Source: Parcubacteria group bacterium GW2011_GWD2_42_14
GTDB taxonomy: Bacteria > Patescibacteriota > Minisyncoccia > Phycocordibacterales > UBA12088
DNA: 34,128 nt
Direction: 5' to 3'
NCBI GenBank assembly: GCA_000998045.1
Contig: LCCS01000005.1
Coordinates: forward strand, 1-34,128
Shown: one piece after another, positions 7,974 to 14,549 of the stretch
Numbering within the stretch: the first letter of the stretch is position 1
How the letters are laid out: each line of letters opens with the position of its first letter
Made by a program: the position numbers and the translations under genes
The notes under the pieces: generated by a model
What the model saw: the letters and a program-made list of their open reading frames with translations, nothing else
What the model was told of the DNA's origin: nothing
Database searches by the model: none

Positions 7974-9014
7974 TTAGGCTATAACAGTCTGCTCCTTTTT
8001 AACAAGGGAGGCCGGGTGTGTCACCGATACCACCGTCCCACGTTCGGTACTTACTCTATCTATCTTAGCATTCAACTGCTTTGTTAAAGATTCAAGAATA
8101 TTTGTTCCGAGTCCAACTCCGTTTTTAAAAGTCGCTTTGAGTCCCACACCATCATCACCAACACTCAGCTTCCATTTTTTTCCCCTCGTTTCATAGCTGA
8201 CTGTTATTTGACCTTCTCCACTGGGGAAGGCGTGCTTCAAAGCGTTCATGACCAACTCTGTGGTAATGAGTCCAAGACTAATAGCTTCATCGGGAGTGAC
8301 GGAGCCCCCTTTTCCTGTGACTTTTAATGAAATCGGCTTATTACCGCTTATCATTGATTTTGCGAGACTTCCACAGAGCATTCTTAGGTAATCCAAGACG
8401 GGTATCAACGAACCATCACTCGTGGGGTCAAGATTTTTCTGAACAGTCGCAATCGAGATAATTCGGTCATGCGCGTCTTCAAGGTGAGCTCGACCCTCTT
8501 TGGATCTTACAGTACCAGCCTTTAGAAGAATTATACTTGCAATAAGCTGAAGACTATTTGCGATACGGTGACGCATCTCTTTGAGAAGAGTATCTTTTTG
8601 CAACATCAGATTTTTTTTGTCGTGTGCTTCCTTATTCTGATCTGTTATGTCAGTTATGGAAACAAAAATATCTTGCTTTTTATTTTTAAGTTTAATTGAA
8701 TGAGCATTTAGGACCATTACCCGCAAACCCAATCGTTCAAATGTATGCAAGACCTCATACCCTTCAATTTTAGTTTTGTCGGGGATAACTTGTTCGAGTA
8801 GTGAAATAAGCGCTGGGATATTCCATTCGCCAGTACCTAATTCTGCAAACTTTTTTCCATGAATTTCCTCATACCTAACTCCAAACTTTTCGTAAAACGC
8901 CCGATTGCCGACAAGGACATGAAGATTTTTGTCCAATATCACTATTGGCTCACGCAGTGCATCTATAATTGCCGCACTTAATTCTGGGTCTAAGCCCTGT
9001 AAAGTTTTATCCAC
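7974..9014 (-). CDS. PAS-domain sensor histidine kinase (HisKA_2 type)
   Basis: N-terminal PAS (EPIVILDKNLHVLVGNRAFYEKFGV); H-box EMRHRIANSLQLIASIILLKAG; N-box ELVMNALKHAFP; DDGVGLKATF. Confidence 0.85.
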   Translation of the reverse strand: MDKTLQGLDPELSAAIIDALREPIVILDKNLHVLVGNRAFYEKFGVRYEEIHGKKFAELGTGEWNIPALISLLEQVIPDKTKIEGYEVLHTFERLGLRVMVLNAHSIKLKNKKQDIFVSITDITDQNKEAHDKKNLMLQKDTLLKEMRHRIANSLQLIASIILLKAGTVRSKEGRAHLEDAHDRIISIATVQKNLDPTSDGSLIPVLDYLRMLCGSLAKSMISGNKPISLKVTGKGGSVTPDEAISLGLITTELVMNALKHAFPSGEGQITVSYETRGKKWKLSVGDDGVGLKATFKNGVGLGTNILESLTKQLNAKIDRVSTERGTVVSVTHPASLVKKEQTVIA

Positions 9015-9133: not shown

Positions 9134-9811
9134 ATGAACAAACAATCTACAGAAATACAGACGGCACGGGTAGCTGTCGACACCGTAGTTTTTTCTGTTT
9201 TTGATGGAGCACTCCATGTATTACTTATTTCAGTAAACAGACCTCCTCATTATAAAAACATGAATGGTCTTCCAGGGGGGTTGATGACCATGAAAGAAAC
9301 TTCTGATGAAGCGGTACGACGCCATCTTTCTGGCAAGATTGGTTTGTTTCATTTGTACTTTGAACAACTATATACCTTTACCGCTATACACAGAGACAAA
9401 CGCAATCGAGTGGTTGCAATAGCTCACCTTGGGCTTGTGACAGAGTCAGAAGCAAAGGGGGTCGCTAGGGAAGGGGGTAGGTGGGTACCTGTCCTTGAGG
9501 TAGGACAACTTGCGTATGATCACAATGAAATCCTCAATACCGCTGTGTTACGCCTCGCAGGCAAACTGTTGTACACAAACATAGTTCGACACCTACTTCC
9601 AAAGAAGTTTACCCTCACGGAACTACAGAAAGTGTATGAGATTATTCGCAACGAAACTTTTGATAAACGTAACTTCCGCAAAAAGATACTTTCTATGAAT
9701 ATCATAAAAGATACCCACGAAATGCAAACTGGCGTAGCCAACCGACCTGCTTCACTCTTCACCTTTACAGGAACAAAGGTTACTGAAATCCCTCTGATTT
9801 CTTCTATCTAA
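9134..9811 (+). CDS. NrtR-like regulator: N-terminal Nudix fold plus C-terminal winged helix
   Basis: GLPGGLMTMKETSDEAVRRHLSGKIGL (Nudix box, degenerate); LAYDHNEILNTAVLRLAGKL; C-terminal FTLTELQKVYEIIRNETFDKRNFRKKILSMNII...NRPASLFTF. Confidence 0.82.
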   Translation: MNKQSTEIQTARVAVDTVVFSVFDGALHVLLISVNRPPHYKNMNGLPGGLMTMKETSDEAVRRHLSGKIGLFHLYFEQLYTFTAIHRDKRNRVVAIAHLGLVTESEAKGVAREGGRWVPVLEVGQLAYDHNEILNTAVLRLAGKLLYTNIVRHLLPKKFTLTELQKVYEIIRNETFDKRNFRKKILSMNIIKDTHEMQTGVANRPASLFTFTGTKVTEIPLISSI

Positions 9812-9812
9812 C

Positions 9813-9911
9813 TTATTGTTATATTGACACTATGATACTTTTCATGTCATAGCTTATTGTTATATTGACACTAACTAACTCTTCCTATATCTTAGTGTTA
9901 GATACACACTA
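9813..9911 (+). promoter_or_regulatory. Three-copy operator-like array overlapping a putative promoter
   Basis: TTATTGT-N7-ACACTA at 9813-9832 and 9854-9873; TTAGTGT-N7-ACACTA at 9892-9911; TTGACA 9865-9870 with TATCTT at 9888-9893 (17-nt spacer). Confidence 0.65.
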
Positions 9912-9954
9912 TGTAGTAACAACCGGTGTTTGTTCTTTGACATAGGAGGAGAAA

Positions 9955-11085
9955 ATGACAACTACTTTTGAGGTGATTTCAGAAAAAATCACCACAGCAA
10001 AAAGATTTGCTGACGTATTCGGCGAAATCAGTTCAAACGATGTAGCACAAAAGTTGCGTGAGCTAAGGAAGCAATACGTGTACATGGCTAAGTTTATACA
10101 TCCTGACCGCGTGTCCAAAGATGAGGCTGAAATGGCCAACACGGTCTTTAGAGATTTTGTTGGTTTGTATGAGCAAGCAAAGAATGCTCTCGAAAATGAC
10201 TCCTACAAAAAACCTCTTACACCACGTGACGTGCAAAGTGCTGGTGTGCAAGACAGTGTCATTGCAACACGTTCGCATACGTACGTGGTAAAAAACACAA
10301 TCTGGGCTGAAGGTGACTTTTCAGATATCCACCTTGGCAAGACAGAAGATGGGACACCGGTACTGATAAAGGTAGCGACAGACCCAACAATGAACCAGTA
10401 CTTGGAACACGAATTCTCTGTGTACAAGAGTATGGATACACATTCGGCAAAGACACAGGTGTTGCAGTATATTCCCAAACTCCTTGATTCGATACTCGTA
10501 GACTTACCTGGTAACAGGCAGATTCGTGTAAACGTGTTTCTGTATCAGGAAGGTTACGTGTCACTTACGAAGATTCGGGAGGTGTATCCCAAGGGACTTG
10601 ATCCGCGCGATGCTTCATGGATATGGAGGCGTGTCTTAGGACACGTCATAACAGCCGAGATGTTGGGAGTGGTGCATGGGGCTATCGTGCCCGACCACAC
10701 ACTTGTTCATCCGATAACGCACGATCCAATAAACATAGGTTGGGCGCACAGCATGCCTCATAAAGGCATGTCCACACGCCTCACAACCTGTATTGATAGA
10801 TGGAAAGCGTGGTATCCAAAGGAGGTGTTTGACCACAAAGTGCCAACACGCAGGACCGACTTGTATATGGCAGGAAAGACGATGCTGTACCTTTTGGGAG
10901 GAGATGTTATACAAAACCATTTCCCAAAAACTGTTCCTCAGCAGGTGCAGAAGATAGTGCAACGTTGTGTTGACGTGAACCCGTCAAACCGACCAGAAAA
11001 CGGATATGAAGTACTCCAACAGTTTACGAACACAATCCATGGACTGTGGGGGAAAACATACCGTAAACTTGCAGTGCCAAACTGA
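9955..11085 (+). CDS. J-domain protein fused to a degenerate protein-kinase-like domain
   Basis: LRELRKQYVYMAKFIHPDRVSKDEAEMANTVFRDFVGLYEQAKNAL (HPD motif); then EGDFSDIHLGKT...VLIKVA...EHEFSVYK N-lobe and HGAIVPDHTLVHP in the catalytic-loop position; RBS ggagga. Confidence 0.72.
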   Translation: MTTTFEVISEKITTAKRFADVFGEISSNDVAQKLRELRKQYVYMAKFIHPDRVSKDEAEMANTVFRDFVGLYEQAKNALENDSYKKPLTPRDVQSAGVQDSVIATRSHTYVVKNTIWAEGDFSDIHLGKTEDGTPVLIKVATDPTMNQYLEHEFSVYKSMDTHSAKTQVLQYIPKLLDSILVDLPGNRQIRVNVFLYQEGYVSLTKIREVYPKGLDPRDASWIWRRVLGHVITAEMLGVVHGAIVPDHTLVHPITHDPINIGWAHSMPHKGMSTRLTTCIDRWKAWYPKEVFDHKVPTRRTDLYMAGKTMLYLLGGDVIQNHFPKTVPQQVQKIVQRCVDVNPSNRPENGYEVLQQFTNTIHGLWGKTYRKLAVPN

Positions 11086-11116
11086 GAAATATAACTTTTA
11101 CAGAGTGGAGGAAATC

Positions 11117-12136
11117 ATGGGTGGAGGAAAATGGGACACAGGTATCTACAGTAGTGCAAAGGCTTCTCGACGTTCGTCGGGTATTGATGATTTCGACTAC
11201 ACCGCTAAGGTGCGTTCGGGAAAGGTATCAAAAGTGAACGAAGTGCTTGACGCAAAGAAAATGGTCAATCCTGACAGTTCACGCTACCCTTTCCCGCTTC
11301 GTGAAAGCAGAGACAGTGACGAGCATCCGCTATCGGTACCAGTCGCAATGTTCTTCGACGTGACTGGCTCCATGGGACATATCCCGAGGGTGCTGCAAGA
11401 AAAGTTACCAAAACTGATGGATGTCATCATCGACAAGGCCGGTCTCTCTGACCCGCAGGTACTTGTTGGGGCAATTGGTGACGCTACATGCGACAGGTAC
11501 CCGTTTCAGGTTGGGCAGTTCGAGTCGGATAACAGTTTTGACGAACAGCTCCGGCAGATAATCCTCGAGGGAGGTGGTGGTGGGCAAACGTTTGAATCGT
11601 ATGCTCTCGCGTACCACTTTGCGGCATACCACACGGCTACAGATGCCTACGAAAAGAGGGGTAAGAAGGGATACTTTTTTACCATGGGTGATGAAGCTCC
11701 TTGGCCGACAGTGACCGTCGAGGAAATGTCTGCCGTGTTCGGAATTTCCACAGGGGAGAACGAGACCGTCGAAAGCCTGCTTGCGCGTGCGCAAGAGAAA
11801 TGGGATATGTTCCATTTGTTCGCAGTCGACGGTGGGTACCCTCATACCAAAAAAATTCATGACCGTTGGCGTGCTCTGTTTGGCGAACGATTTATCATGG
11901 TTGAGGACTCAAGACTCGTGTGTGAAGTTATCGCTGGCATTATCCATATGATGGAAAATTCCTACGATGCTGACCGCGTCGTTCAAGACATTGGGCTTTC
12001 GGGCAAAAACGCTTCCATGGTAAAAAATGCTCTCGTTCCTCTCTCTACCTCTTCTTCACTCGTCGTGAGGGCGGTTGCAGAAGGTACTGCATTGACGAAT
12101 AGTGGTCGCCGAAAAAGAGGGGTAACCCGTCTTTAG
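11117..12136 (+). CDS. von Willebrand factor A (vWA) domain protein
   Basis: FFDVTGSMGHIPRVLQEKLPKLMDVII (MIDAS DxTxS); later YFFTMGDEAPW; ATG 11117 with gtggagg upstream. Confidence 0.75.
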   Translation: MGGGKWDTGIYSSAKASRRSSGIDDFDYTAKVRSGKVSKVNEVLDAKKMVNPDSSRYPFPLRESRDSDEHPLSVPVAMFFDVTGSMGHIPRVLQEKLPKLMDVIIDKAGLSDPQVLVGAIGDATCDRYPFQVGQFESDNSFDEQLRQIILEGGGGGQTFESYALAYHFAAYHTATDAYEKRGKKGYFFTMGDEAPWPTVTVEEMSAVFGISTGENETVESLLARAQEKWDMFHLFAVDGGYPHTKKIHDRWRALFGERFIMVEDSRLVCEVIAGIIHMMENSYDADRVVQDIGLSGKNASMVKNALVPLSTSSSLVVRAVAEGTALTNSGRRKRGVTRL

Positions 12137-12154
12137 GTAATTGTTAATCCATTT

Positions 12155-12184
12155 GTACGGTGGCACGACTTTGTGCCACCGTAC
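12155..12184 (+). promoter_or_regulatory. Perfect hairpin in the 5' leader of the PurA-like gene
   Basis: GTACGGTGGCAC (12155-12166) - GACTTT - GTGCCACCGTAC (12173-12184), no U-tract; RBS aaaggag begins about 11 nt downstream. Confidence 0.7.
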
Positions 12185-12208
12185 CTCATGTATACAAAGG
12201 AGAACACC

Positions 12209-13609
12209 ATGCAAGCTACTATAGTGATTGATCTTGGATTTGGAGACGCTGGCAAAGGAACGATGGTTGATTATTTGTCGCGGGGAATGCGTGAGCCGGT
12301 CATTGTGCGCTTTAACGGCGGAGCTCAGGCAGCGCACAACGTGGTAACGCCACGTGGCGTACATCATACGTTCTCTCAGTTTGGAAGTGGCACGCTCGTT
12401 GATGGAGTCCGCACCTTCCTTTCGAGATTTATGTTGCTTGACCCCTACGCACTTCTTGCGGAATCACGCGGACTTGAGAAACTTGGAGTAAAAAATCCGC
12501 TTGCGCGTGTCATGGTAGACGGTGAGGCACTCGTGGTGACACCTTTCCACAAAGCAGCGAACCGCTTACGTGAGGTACTGCGGGGAAACGGCAGGCACGG
12601 CAGTGTCGGTATGGGAATAGGTGAGACTATGGCAGACATGCTAGCGTTTCCTCACTTGGCGGTACGAGCTCAAGATTTGCGCTCCTTAGCAACCATTGAA
12701 ATGAAGTGTCGAGGTCTTCAGGAACTAAAGTATTCTGAATTCAAAGACTCTTTTACTGGCGTCGCCGCCACGGGATTTCTTCCCGATGAACTTAGAATAC
12801 TGACGGATCCTTTTGCACCTAGAAAGGTTGCGTATGAAATGGTACGAATCGCACGACTGTTTTCGCTGGTTTCAATGAAAACTTTAGAACGACTTTCGTA
12901 CACACACCCGCTTATTTTTGAAGGAGCACAAGGAGTACTTATTGACGAGTGGCACGGCTTTCATCCCTACACTACGTGGAGTACCACAACCAACGCCAAC
13001 GCCAACATACTACTGAGGGAGATTGTGTATCCTAACAACGTGACGCGCCTTGGTGTCGTGCGGGCGTATGGTACACGGCACGGACCTGGACCATTCCCGA
13101 GTGAAAATATGGAACTCACGATGCGGTTACCTGACAAACATAACAACTTTGGAATATGGCAGGGAGGGTTTCGGGTAGGGTGGCTTGATATACCACTTAC
13201 GCGATACGCTCTTACGGTCTCTGATGGTACTGAGAGTGTGGCACTCACACATCTCGACCGGTATGCCACGTTACCACAAAAACGATTGGTTACGGCATAC
13301 AAGGTCTTGAAGGGAAAACTGACAGAAAGGGAAAAGGCAGTAATTGTGGTAGATTGGAAAAAATCACAAGGTGACGAAATGTATATTGTCTCATTTCGAA
13401 GGAAATCCAATCTTGAAGACCTTGAGTATCAGGAAATGCTTGGTGAGATTCTTACGAAGGCGACGCCAGTAGTCGAAGACATTGACTACACCGAGGAACG
13501 CTTTATTGAGTATGTGAGTAAACTTCTTTCTCTTCCTATTTCTGTCACCTCTCACGGACCGACGGCCTTTGAAAAGCTTGAAAAAGTGAAAATACAGAAG
13601 GCTGCATAG
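12209..13609 (+). CDS. Divergent adenylosuccinate synthetase-like (PurA superfamily) enzyme
   Basis: DLGFGDAGKGTMVDYL; RFNGGAQAAHN; GSVGMGIGET; FEGAQGVLIDEWHGFHPYTT; YGTRHGPGPFPSE; GWLDIPLTRYALTVSDGTESVALTHLDRY; TSHGP near the C-terminus. Confidence 0.82.
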   Translation: MQATIVIDLGFGDAGKGTMVDYLSRGMREPVIVRFNGGAQAAHNVVTPRGVHHTFSQFGSGTLVDGVRTFLSRFMLLDPYALLAESRGLEKLGVKNPLARVMVDGEALVVTPFHKAANRLREVLRGNGRHGSVGMGIGETMADMLAFPHLAVRAQDLRSLATIEMKCRGLQELKYSEFKDSFTGVAATGFLPDELRILTDPFAPRKVAYEMVRIARLFSLVSMKTLERLSYTHPLIFEGAQGVLIDEWHGFHPYTTWSTTTNANANILLREIVYPNNVTRLGVVRAYGTRHGPGPFPSENMELTMRLPDKHNNFGIWQGGFRVGWLDIPLTRYALTVSDGTESVALTHLDRYATLPQKRLVTAYKVLKGKLTEREKAVIVVDWKKSQGDEMYIVSFRRKSNLEDLEYQEMLGEILTKATPVVEDIDYTEERFIEYVSKLLSLPISVTSHGPTAFEKLEKVKIQKAA

Positions 13610-13622
13610 CAGTTCCTTCAAT

Positions 13623-13655
13623 ACTAACCGACTACTAATTTAGTTGGTTAGTTTG
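13623..13655 (+). terminator. Terminator-like hairpin ending the J-domain/vWA/PurA-like operon
   Basis: ACTAACCGACTA / TAGTTGGTTAGT (one G-T pair) followed by TTGTGTG. Confidence 0.55.
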
Positions 13656-13718: not shown

Positions 13719-14549
13719 ATGGAAAGGAAAGTACCCAAAGTTGGTTTGGCACTGAGCGGAGGCGCTACATTAGGTATTGCTCATGTGGGCGTACTCAAGG
13801 CCTTTGCTGATCACCATATTCCAATAGATTACATAAGTGGCACGAGTACCGGCTCCCTTGTGGCTGCGTGCTTTGCCTTTGGTATGCCTTTGTCTCAAAT
13901 GATTGAGATTACAGAGGGGCTTGACTGGAAAAAGATTTCCAAATTTGGATATTCAAGACTTGGTATTAATACTAATAAACCAATGTCAGTTTTCATTACT
14001 GATTTATTAGGAGATGTAAAAATCGAAGATGCCAACATCCCTTTGGCTATAGTCGCAACAGATATTGAATCATTCGAGATGGTAGTTTTACGTGAGGGGA
14101 GCCTCCATGAAGCTATACGCGCAAGCACATGCATTCCAGGATTCTTTGCTCCTGTCGAACTTAACGGCAGAATGCTTGTTGATGGGGTGCTTTCCGAAAA
14201 TTTACCACTTACCCCTCTCGATGAGATGGGTGCGGTAATCAAGATAGGTGTCAATCTGTCTTCCAATCCAGTGAAAGTACGGCCTCAAAACATACTTGAG
14301 GTGATAAGTAACTCGTACACAGTTCTATCGCGTCATCGTGATGTAAACCTAAATTCCCGTGCTGATGTGATTATCGAACCTGATTTAAACAAATTTGATT
14401 CTAGAAAATTTAAAGATGCAGACCAAATATTAGAAGAAGGTTATAACGCAGCCCTGAAAGCAATTCCTGTAATCAAAGAAATAATATCGTCACATCACAA
14501 AAAGAAAGGATGGCTCGCAGAGCTTCTGTCATTTTTTACTAGTAAGTAG
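13719..14549 (+). CDS. Patatin-like phospholipase (RssA-like)
   Basis: LALSGGATLGIAHVGVL oxyanion motif; GTSTGS nucleophile elbow; DGVLSENLPLTPL. Confidence 0.9.
   Translation: MERKVPKVGLALSGGATLGIAHVGVLKAFADHHIPIDYISGTSTGSLVAACFAFGMPLSQMIEITEGLDWKKISKFGYSRLGINTNKPMSVFITDLLGDVKIEDANIPLAIVATDIESFEMVVLREGSLHEAIRASTCIPGFFAPVELNGRMLVDGVLSENLPLTPLDEMGAVIKIGVNLSSNPVKVRPQNILEVISNSYTVLSRHRDVNLNSRADVIIEPDLNKFDSRKFKDADQILEEGYNAALKAIPVIKEIISSHHKKKGWLAELLSFFTSK

What the first reader, a model, noticed from the sequence alone, without database searches (positions are those of the whole stretch)
9134..13655. Candidate undescribed four-gene system: NrtR-like sensor, J-domain/pseudokinase, vWA protein and divergent PurA-like enzyme
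Seen directly: a Nudix-wHTH regulator, a repeated palindromic operator, and three tightly spaced co-directional genes. The gaps are about 31 nt and 72 nt, each gene has a strong RBS, and a hairpin closes the unit at 13623-13655. Established knowledge: NrtR proteins sense ADP-ribose/NAD-related metabolites; J-domains recruit Hsp70; MIDAS-type vWA domains scaffold complexes; PurA-family enzymes couple GTP to amidoligation of purine nucleotides. Kinase plus vWA plus a nucleotide enzyme recalls the TerY/Ter-type stress systems, but no TerD or PP2C gene is visible here. Inference: a metabolite-gated chaperone/vWA complex that makes or handles a modified nucleotide, possibly in stress response, phage defence or cell-cell conflict. 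I do not recognise a named system with this composition.
Basis: partly seen in the sequence, partly recalled or inferred. Interest (0 to 1): 0.88.

Follow-up and report, generated by a model that had tools for sequence, protein, structure and literature searches.

The report
Unnamed phage-borne PurA–vWA–pseudokinase gene module
A three-gene unit (a chaperone-recruiting dead kinase, a metal-binding scaffold protein and a rebuilt version of the purine enzyme PurA) that hundreds of large phages and some plasmids and bacteria carry side by side; in bacteria an ADP-ribose-type sensor usually controls it, and no description of it was found, so what it makes is a testable open question.

Summary
Window 9134-13655 holds NrtR, three operators, then J-domain/pseudokinase (JK), vWA and PurA-like genes and a terminator. 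The trio is a real unit. Of the 80 best of 353 IMG/VR contigs encoding the vWA, 78 have PurA-like beside it and 56 a JK. It is also in ~190 Mycobacterium C1 phages, in plasmids of Actinomycetota and Proteobacteria, a Planctomycetota contig and sparse Patescibacteria; Rhizobium and Vibrio phages have vWA-PurA. It is not housekeeping purA: the genome has no other PurA and no PurB, and four of six genus members lack the module. The enzyme keeps GTP/catalytic residues (D13, K16, H41, Q224; D333 in 85/87) but has rebuilt the aspartate loop (R303 deleted 87/87, T301 to Q 85/87) and part of the IMP site. JK keeps HPD but lacks the catalytic Asp; vWA keeps its MIDAS. Cellular copies usually carry NrtR (10/13), viral copies rarely (2/80); the operator occurs nowhere else in the genome. 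Best reading: a GTP-dependent purine-modifying enzyme with a non-aspartate acceptor, served by an Hsp70-recruiting vWA/pseudokinase adaptor and gated by ADP-ribose/NAD status in cells. Product and role are unproven.

The parts
9134..9811 (+). NrtR-like regulator: degenerate Nudix domain (no catalytic Nudix box) plus NrtR winged helix; dedicated repressor of the operon (inferred)
   Evidence: Pfam NrtR_WHD 4.4e-25, NUDIX 8.6e-7; no GX5EX7REUXEEXGU motif; orthologue beside the module in 10 of 13 cellular loci
9813..9832 (+). operator copy 1 (TTATTGTTATATTGACACTA)
9854..9873 (+). operator copy 2 (TTATTGTTATATTGACACTA)
9892..9911 (+). operator copy 3 (TTAGTGTTAGATACACACTA), best palindrome
9955..11085 (+). 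JK: N-terminal J-domain (about residues 26-81, HPD 49-51) fused to a pseudokinase (HRD to HGA, DFG to IGW)
   Evidence: HPD in 50/55 homologues, catalytic Asp position Ala/Gly/Ser in 51/55
11117..12136 (+). vWA protein with intact MIDAS (DVTGS 81-85, D192) and conserved MGxGxW start
12209..13609 (+). PurA-like enzyme with retained GTP/catalytic residues and rebuilt aspartate/IMP sites
13619..13655 (+). hairpin followed by a weak T-rich stretch; likely terminator of the unit
   Evidence: -15.9 kcal/mol; sequence

Best explanation
A mobile enzyme module. SHOWN (by sequence and context): JK, vWA and PurA-like genes are a conserved unit; in cells the unit usually comes with an NrtR regulator, and here operators unique to this locus lie between NrtR and JK; the PurA-like enzyme keeps the GTP-binding and catalytic residues but has lost the aspartate-binding arginine and changed part of the nucleotide-phosphate pocket; JK has a J-domain and a catalytically dead kinase fold; vWA has an intact MIDAS. 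INFERRED: the PurA-like protein still uses GTP to phosphorylate the lactam oxygen of a purine-containing substrate (6-oxopurine nucleotide or a larger derivative), but couples it to an acceptor other than L-aspartate. The vWA and JK proteins form an adaptor that binds the enzyme or its substrate through the MIDAS and recruits host Hsp70 through HPD, to load, activate or remodel it. In cells NrtR represses the operon until ADP-ribose/NAD-derived nucleotides rise. Phages carry the effector trio without the gate, probably as a counter-measure to host attack on nucleotides, NAD or RNA, or as part of take-over.
For: Unit: 53 of 80 viral loci have JK-vWA-PurA in that order on one strand, 78 of 80 have vWA+PurA; same trio in C1 mycobacteriophages, plasmids of Rhodococcus, Tsukamurella, Acetobacter, Agrobacterium, Variovorax and Rhizobium, Planctomycetota and Patescibacteria. 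Distance matrices of the three proteins correlate, r 0.82-0.91, 0 of 2000 permutations (part of this is shared host phylogeny). Rebuilt active site: 87 homologues against E. coli PurA. Not AMP synthesis: no second PurA, no ADSL_C, no lyase-1 family in the genome; module in 2 of 6 genus members. Gate: operator unique in genome, conserved in genus mate; TTAG-N13-CTAA pairs also between NrtR and JK on Acetobacter and Agrobacterium plasmids, expected 0.01-0.02. NAD/RNA context: one Patescibacteria locus has NrtR, a nucleotidyltransferase, JK, vWA, PK-like, PurA-like, isochorismatase/nicotinamidase-like, NAD-kinase-domain and ADP-ribosylglycohydrolase genes in a row; viral neighbours include HAD_SAK_2 x7, R2K x6, NAMPT x2, NADAR, Thg1; a Vibrio phage has NADAR and TROVE genes nearby. 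DnaK is present. An intein in the vWA of phage Sauce just before MIDAS motif 3 suggests a functionally constrained site.
Against: No biochemistry: substrate, acceptor, complex formation and ADP-ribose binding are all unmeasured. 24 of 80 viral loci lack a recognisable JK in the held DNA, so JK is dispensable or replaceable. NAD/RNA-repair neighbours are a minority and large phages are rich in such genes; no background rate was measured. The adaptor idea rests on family knowledge of J-domains and vWA domains only. The kinase DFG aspartate is kept in 19 of 55 homologues.
Confidence: 0.5

Rival explanations
1. The PurA-like protein makes a modified (deoxy)purine nucleotide that phages build into their DNA or RNA (a base-modification pathway comparable to PurZ), with JK/vWA as helper proteins.
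For: PurA-fold enzymes do this in Z-genome phages (PMC8342488); PHROGs names the family '2-aminooxy adenylosuccinate synthetase'; most copies found are in phages; the rebuilt pocket implies a new product.
Against: NF038379 PurZ score 35 against a cut-off of 300; PurZ keeps the aspartate loop tip (PMC8342488), this family does not; position D21 is mostly Asp (58/87), rarely Ser (5/87), and Asp in the window protein. Cellular copies with a dedicated NrtR do not fit a genome-modification role.
Confidence: 0.17
2. A Ter-like stress or conflict system: a vWA/kinase signalling module coupled to an enzyme that makes a nucleoside-like signal.
For: Same theme of kinase fold + vWA + nucleotide enzyme; a Rhizobium phage locus has PRTase_3 and HAD genes, and PMC7824862 describes PRTase and HAD enzymes as the signal-making part of Ter systems; in Patescibacteria the kinase-vWA pair also occurs with a pyruvate-kinase-like barrel and once with a radical SAM gene.
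Against: No TerD or PP2C in the window; the kinase is catalytically dead, unlike the TerY-P triad; the module recurs without recognised Ter genes among the commonest viral neighbours.
Confidence: 0.13
3. The PurA-like protein is a dead enzyme used as a GTP-binding regulator or scaffold.
For: The partner kinase is dead; substrate residues of PurA are lost.
Against: D13, K16, H41, Q224 and D229 are invariant in 87 sequences, and new residues (Q301, H273) are fixed in 85-87 of 87, which looks like selection for a new reaction, not decay.
Confidence: 0.1
4. Ordinary purine salvage: a divergent adenylosuccinate synthase giving AMP, neighbours incidental.
For: PurA fold over full length, 215 bits to PF00709; the only PurA in the genome.
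Against: Neighbours are conserved in phages and several bacterial phyla; aspartate-site Arg303 missing in 87/87; no PurB or any lyase-1 enzyme in the genome; score far below the NCBIfam purA cut-off (154.6 against 395.55).
Confidence: 0.04

Closest known systems
Adenylosuccinate synthetase PurA (PF00709, TIGR00184)
   Same: Same fold over the full length; GDxGKG loop, catalytic D13/H41/Q224 and GTP-recognising D333 kept
   Different: R303 deleted, R305 mostly F/L, T301 to Q, T300 to aromatic, N38 to Q, T129 to C/V, R143 lost, V273 to H; in an operon with vWA; no PurB
PurZ (2-aminoadenylosuccinate synthetase of Z-genome phages)
   Same: Phage-borne PurA-fold enzyme with shifted specificity
   Different: Aspartate loop tip lost, D21 mostly kept, score far below the PurZ cut-off, different neighbours
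NrtR (Nudix-wHTH, ADP-ribose-responsive regulators of NAD genes)
   Same: NrtR winged helix, degenerate Nudix, palindromic operators beside its target operon
   Different: Target is this module, not NAD biosynthesis; no NAPRTase in the genome
Ter / TerY-P systems (vWA + kinase + phosphatase, nucleoside-like metabolite)
   Same: vWA with a kinase fold beside a nucleotide enzyme
   Different: No TerD, no PP2C, dead kinase with J-domain, PurA-like enzyme instead of PRTase
MoxR-vWA chaperone pairs
   Same: vWA as probable peptide- or protein-binding co-chaperone
   Different: No AAA+ partner; a J-domain pseudokinase takes the ATPase-recruiting place (inferred)
PHROG families 3043, 2971, 1211
   Same: The three phage proteins are already clustered as separate families (kinase; unknown function; '2-aminooxy adenylosuccinate synthetase')
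   Different: Listed as separate families; no description as one system was found

Membership tests
PurA (adenylosuccinate synthetase) | PurA fold with catalytic Asp13, Lys16, His41, Gln224 | tested here: met
   87/87 homologues; PF00709 1.5e-63
PurA (adenylosuccinate synthetase) | L-aspartate loop with Thr301, Arg303, Arg305 | tested here: not met
   R303 gap in 87/87, R305 is F/L in 76/87, T301 is Q in 85/87
PurA (adenylosuccinate synthetase) | NCBIfam equivalog score | tested here: not met
   154.6 bits against 395.55 for TIGR00184
PurA (adenylosuccinate synthetase) | Adenylosuccinate lyase PurB in the same genome | tested here: not met
   No PF10397 and no PF00206 match; genome estimated 94% complete
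PurZ | NF038379 cut-off; Ser at the D21 position; kept aspartate loop tip | tested here: not met
   35.1 bits against 300; Asp in the window protein, Ser in 5/87, loop lost; PurZ features from PMC8342488
PurZ | Partner genes DatZ, MazZ, DpoZ in the same phage | not tested
   Not searched
NrtR | NrtR winged-helix domain with degenerate Nudix box | tested here: met
   88 bits against 27; no Nudix box
NrtR | Palindromic operator at its target operon | tested here: met
   Three copies, unique in the genome, conserved in a genus mate
NrtR | Binding of ADP-ribose or a related nucleotide | not testable with these tools
   Needs a binding assay
J-domain proteins | J-domain fold with HPD motif | tested here: met
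   HPD in 50/55; DnaJB6 3e-8; helical N-terminal domain in the model
Active protein kinases | Catalytic Asp of HRD and Asp of DFG | tested here: not met
   HRD Asp in 2/55; DFG Asp in 19/55, both absent in the window protein
vWA domain | vWA fold with MIDAS DxSxS/DxTxS and a later Asp | tested here: met
   D81, T83 in 67/68, S85 in 66/68, D192 in 68/68; Foldseek integrin I and Ku80
Ter / TerY-P | TerD and/or PP2C with active kinase | tested here: not met
   None among the window genes scanned; kinase inactive
MoxR-vWA | Adjacent MoxR AAA+ ATPase | tested here: not met
   No AAA+ gene in the operon
Known anti-phage defence systems | Match to PADLOC models | tested here: not met
   Only weak kinase similarity of JK to mad6 and of NrtR to PDC-S07; none for vWA or PurA-like

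The most novel reading that the evidence does not exclude
A new kind of nucleotide-handling system spread mainly by large phages: a PurA-derived enzyme with a new reaction (GTP-activated purine coupled to a non-aspartate acceptor), assembled or switched by a J-domain pseudokinase and a vWA protein through host Hsp70, used by phages against NAD-, nucleotide- or RNA-based immunity and kept by plasmids and ultrasmall bacteria under an ADP-ribose-sensing switch.
Probability: 0.3. Interest if true: 0.93.

Novelty: categorically new. Interest (0 to 1): 0.85.

Why it matters
The three genes sit in well-studied mycobacteriophages (cluster C1, about 190 sequenced genomes) as 'serine/threonine kinase', 'hypothetical protein' and 'PurA-like adenylosuccinate synthetase', so function can be tested at once in M. 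smegmatis. If the enzyme makes a new nucleotide, or reverses one made by host immunity, it adds a new chemistry to phage-host conflict and a role for a J-domain/pseudokinase fusion with vWA in enzyme activation, and it corrects a likely wrong name in many genome annotations.

Tried and rejected
Housekeeping purA: rejected by lineage absence, no PurB, lost aspartate site. PurZ: rejected by score, loop and D21. Ter system: no TerD/PP2C in the window. Known defence system: no PADLOC match of weight. Rfam and tRNA scans of the window gave nothing. JK missing near the vWA was looked for elsewhere in 24 viral records: only two weak matches, to the J-domain part alone, so the gap is not simple relocation, though the records may be fragments. 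NrtR elsewhere in 40 viral records: full-length strong hits only in two, both over 400 kb and beside the module. The single-palindrome test of the operator in the window was not above shuffles. A genome-wide search for further operators found none. The PurA-like structure was not predicted (both jobs went to vWA and JK) and no complex prediction was possible. Papers: nothing describing the trio in the searches; PMC9503650, PMC7824862, PMC7159879 and PMC12839542 do not mention adenylosuccinate synthetase. The Ter review (PMC4104200) is not held, and a 2016 RNA-repair survey known to me from memory did not come up, so a prior mention there is not excluded.
Full report
OBSERVATION. The window is contig C5 of a 1.08 Mb, 94% complete genome in 44 contigs; its near relative is a Parcubacteria-group genome, so it is a member of the Patescibacteria. 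The module genes JK, vWA and PurA have 46-51% G+C against 41-42% around them, as expected of acquired DNA. Between NrtR and JK lie three 26-nt repeats, 41 and 38 nt apart. The genus mate GW2011_GWA2_43_11 (L010) has the same three sites at the same spacing, two of them perfect palindromes. With up to two mismatches the site occurs three times in the whole genome, all here; the reversed control pattern occurs zero times.

THE PARTS. NrtR: winged helix 88 bits, no catalytic Nudix box. JK: profile matches to J-domain proteins (DnaJB6, 3e-8, profile residues 26-81) and to Ser/Thr kinases (StkP, 4e-10). Its model (pLDDT 92.9) matches kinases at E about 1e-11 and, as a whole, a DnaJ-PKA fusion. In 55 homologues HPD is kept in 50; the catalytic Asp position is Ala/Gly/Ser in 51. 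vWA: no Pfam or PDB sequence match, but the model (pLDDT 92.6) is a vWA fold and the MIDAS is intact in practically all 68 homologues.

THE PurA-LIKE ENZYME. Aligned to E. coli PurA, 87 module enzymes keep G12, D13, K16, G17, H41, E221, Q224, D229 and R272 without exception, T239 in 86 and D333 in 85. They replace N38 by Gln (84), T129 by Cys/Val (84), R131 by mostly hydrophobic residues, V273 by His (87), T300 by an aromatic residue (73) and T301 by Gln (85); R143 is lost, R303 is deleted (87) and R305 is Phe/Leu (76). In PurA, R303 contacts the IMP ribose and the free aspartate (PMC8342488, citing Wang 1995); the roles of the other residues are from general knowledge of PurA. The seven type-B Patescibacteria enzymes share the W-Q-G..R loop and H273, though five of them also lose Q224. 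So in the main family catalysis is kept while the acceptor site and part of the nucleotide site are rebuilt in a fixed way. That is inference about chemistry from sequence; no assay exists.

IT IS A UNIT. A profile scan of IMG/VR found 353 contigs encoding the vWA. Of the best 80, 53 show JK-vWA-PurA in order on one strand, 23 show vWA-PurA without JK, 2 have NrtR plus all three, 1 has JK-vWA and 1 vWA alone within the stretch held. Contigs reach 512 kb. Among sequenced phages the vWA is in 208 records: 189 Mycobacterium, 10 Rhizobium, 6 Vibrio and a few others, with kinase and PurA beside it in Ghost and Sauce and PurA beside it in Rhizobium and Vibrio phages. Cellular copies are on plasmids of Rhodococcus, Tsukamurella, Acetobacter, Agrobacterium, Rhodovulum (PurA missing), Rhizobium and Variovorax, in a Planctomycetota contig and in about 2-4% of the Patescibacteria genomes sampled, type B included. 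Distances among the three proteins correlate (Mantel r 0.82-0.91, 0 of 2000 permutations); shared phage phylogeny contributes, so this shows co-inheritance, not contact.

NOT HOUSEKEEPING. There is no second PurA, no ADSL_C and no Lyase_1 member at all (the control finds it in 14 of 14 genomes). PurA-family genes are in 3 of 41 genomes counting this one, and the vWA is in 2 of 6 genus members.

GATE. NrtR lies beside 10 of 13 cellular loci with enough flank (window, L010, L014-L018, L123, L130, L134; not L124, L129, L135) but beside only 2 of 80 viral loci, and is not found at full length elsewhere in 40 viral records. TTAG-N13-CTAA palindromes occur twice each between NrtR and JK on the Acetobacter and Agrobacterium plasmids and in L010, where 0.01-0.03 are expected; Rhodococcus and Tsukamurella have 21-nt palindromes TTTTAGTC-N5-GACTAAAA and TTCTAGTC-N5-GACTAGAA upstream of JK. 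So NrtR control of this module looks old and dedicated. That the ligand is ADP-ribose follows from the NrtR family, not from a test here.

CONTEXT. One Patescibacteria locus (L134) strings together NrtR, a cytidylyltransferase-like gene, JK, vWA, a PK-like barrel, PurA-like, an isochorismatase/nicotinamidase-like gene, an NAD-kinase-domain gene and an ADP-ribosylglycohydrolase. Among 115 near viral neighbours the commonest families are HAD_SAK_2 (7), R2K ATP-grasp (6), homing-endonuclease domains and NAMPT (2), with single NADAR, Thg1, Band_7 and PNKP-type HAD. PMC7824862 and PMC9503650 describe RNA-repair, NAD and R2K enzymes in large phages. No background rate was measured, so this is a lead only. 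In Patescibacteria the kinase-vWA pair also occurs with a pyruvate-kinase-like barrel in place of, or next to, PurA-like, which suggests that the pair is a general partner for diverted metabolic enzymes.

MECHANISM AND NOVELTY. I favour a GTP-dependent purine-modifying enzyme with a non-aspartate acceptor, served by a vWA/J-pseudokinase adaptor that recruits Hsp70 (a DnaK gene is present), gated by NrtR in cells and ungated in phages. Shown: composition, conservation, residue changes, operator. Inferred: reaction, complex, ligand, role. The parts belong to known families, and PHROGs holds them as three separate families, but I found no description of the system in the papers searched; one key review was not held. 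I call the system categorically new in composition, with function open.

Noticed in passing
L021 5194-6978 (Mycobacterium phage Sauce): The vWA gene carries an in-frame insert of about 255 aa with intein-like ends (starts with Cys, ends SN|C), annotated HNH endonuclease, just before MIDAS motif 3; several C1 phages show the same split match.
   Followed up: partly
L092, L099, L104, L107, L112, L116, L117, directly upstream of vWA: These viral loci without JK have instead a conserved, probably helical protein of about 120 aa (LKRNNKQIRADRA...DLSP); the one tested (L112) matches no Pfam or PHROG family. A possible JK substitute.
   Followed up: partly
L023, L024, L129, L131, L133, L134, L135: vWA genes, mostly with a kinase-like gene, sit with a pyruvate-kinase-like barrel protein, once also with a radical SAM gene; L134 and L135 have both PK-like and PurA-like enzymes, L129 two cassettes in tandem.
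   Followed up: partly
L025 10839-11873, L026 10748-11971, L027 6147-7178, L132 3116-4147: Type-B Patescibacteria modules have a fourth gene after PurA-like; the two tested have no Pfam match.
   Followed up: partly
L010 4560-4693: An element of about 134 bp with perfect 17-bp terminal inverted repeats (MITE-like) lies between NrtR and the operators in the genus mate, ending in operator 1; absent in the window.
   Followed up: no
L010 12486-12623: A second copy of the PurA-like C-terminus (65% identical to residues 421-466) lies about 4 kb downstream of the module, behind other genes; possibly a remnant of duplication or insertion.
   Followed up: no
L017 1-1797 and 8274-12735: On the Agrobacterium vitis plasmid the module is followed directly by AAA ATPase, DUF5682 and DUF4132 genes, a neighbourhood resembling MoxR-vWA systems, and lies near a type VI secretion tip gene.
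   Followed up: no
L019 975-3239: Rhizobium phage RHph_TM39 has HAD and PRTase_3 (ComF-like) genes and an annotated NMN adenylyltransferase/NUDIX gene a few kb upstream of vWA-PurA.
   Followed up: partly
window 7974-9014 (-) and 13719-14549 (+): The module is flanked by a PAS-HisKA_2 histidine kinase and a patatin-like phospholipase; neither was seen beside it in the annotated loci inspected.
   Followed up: partly
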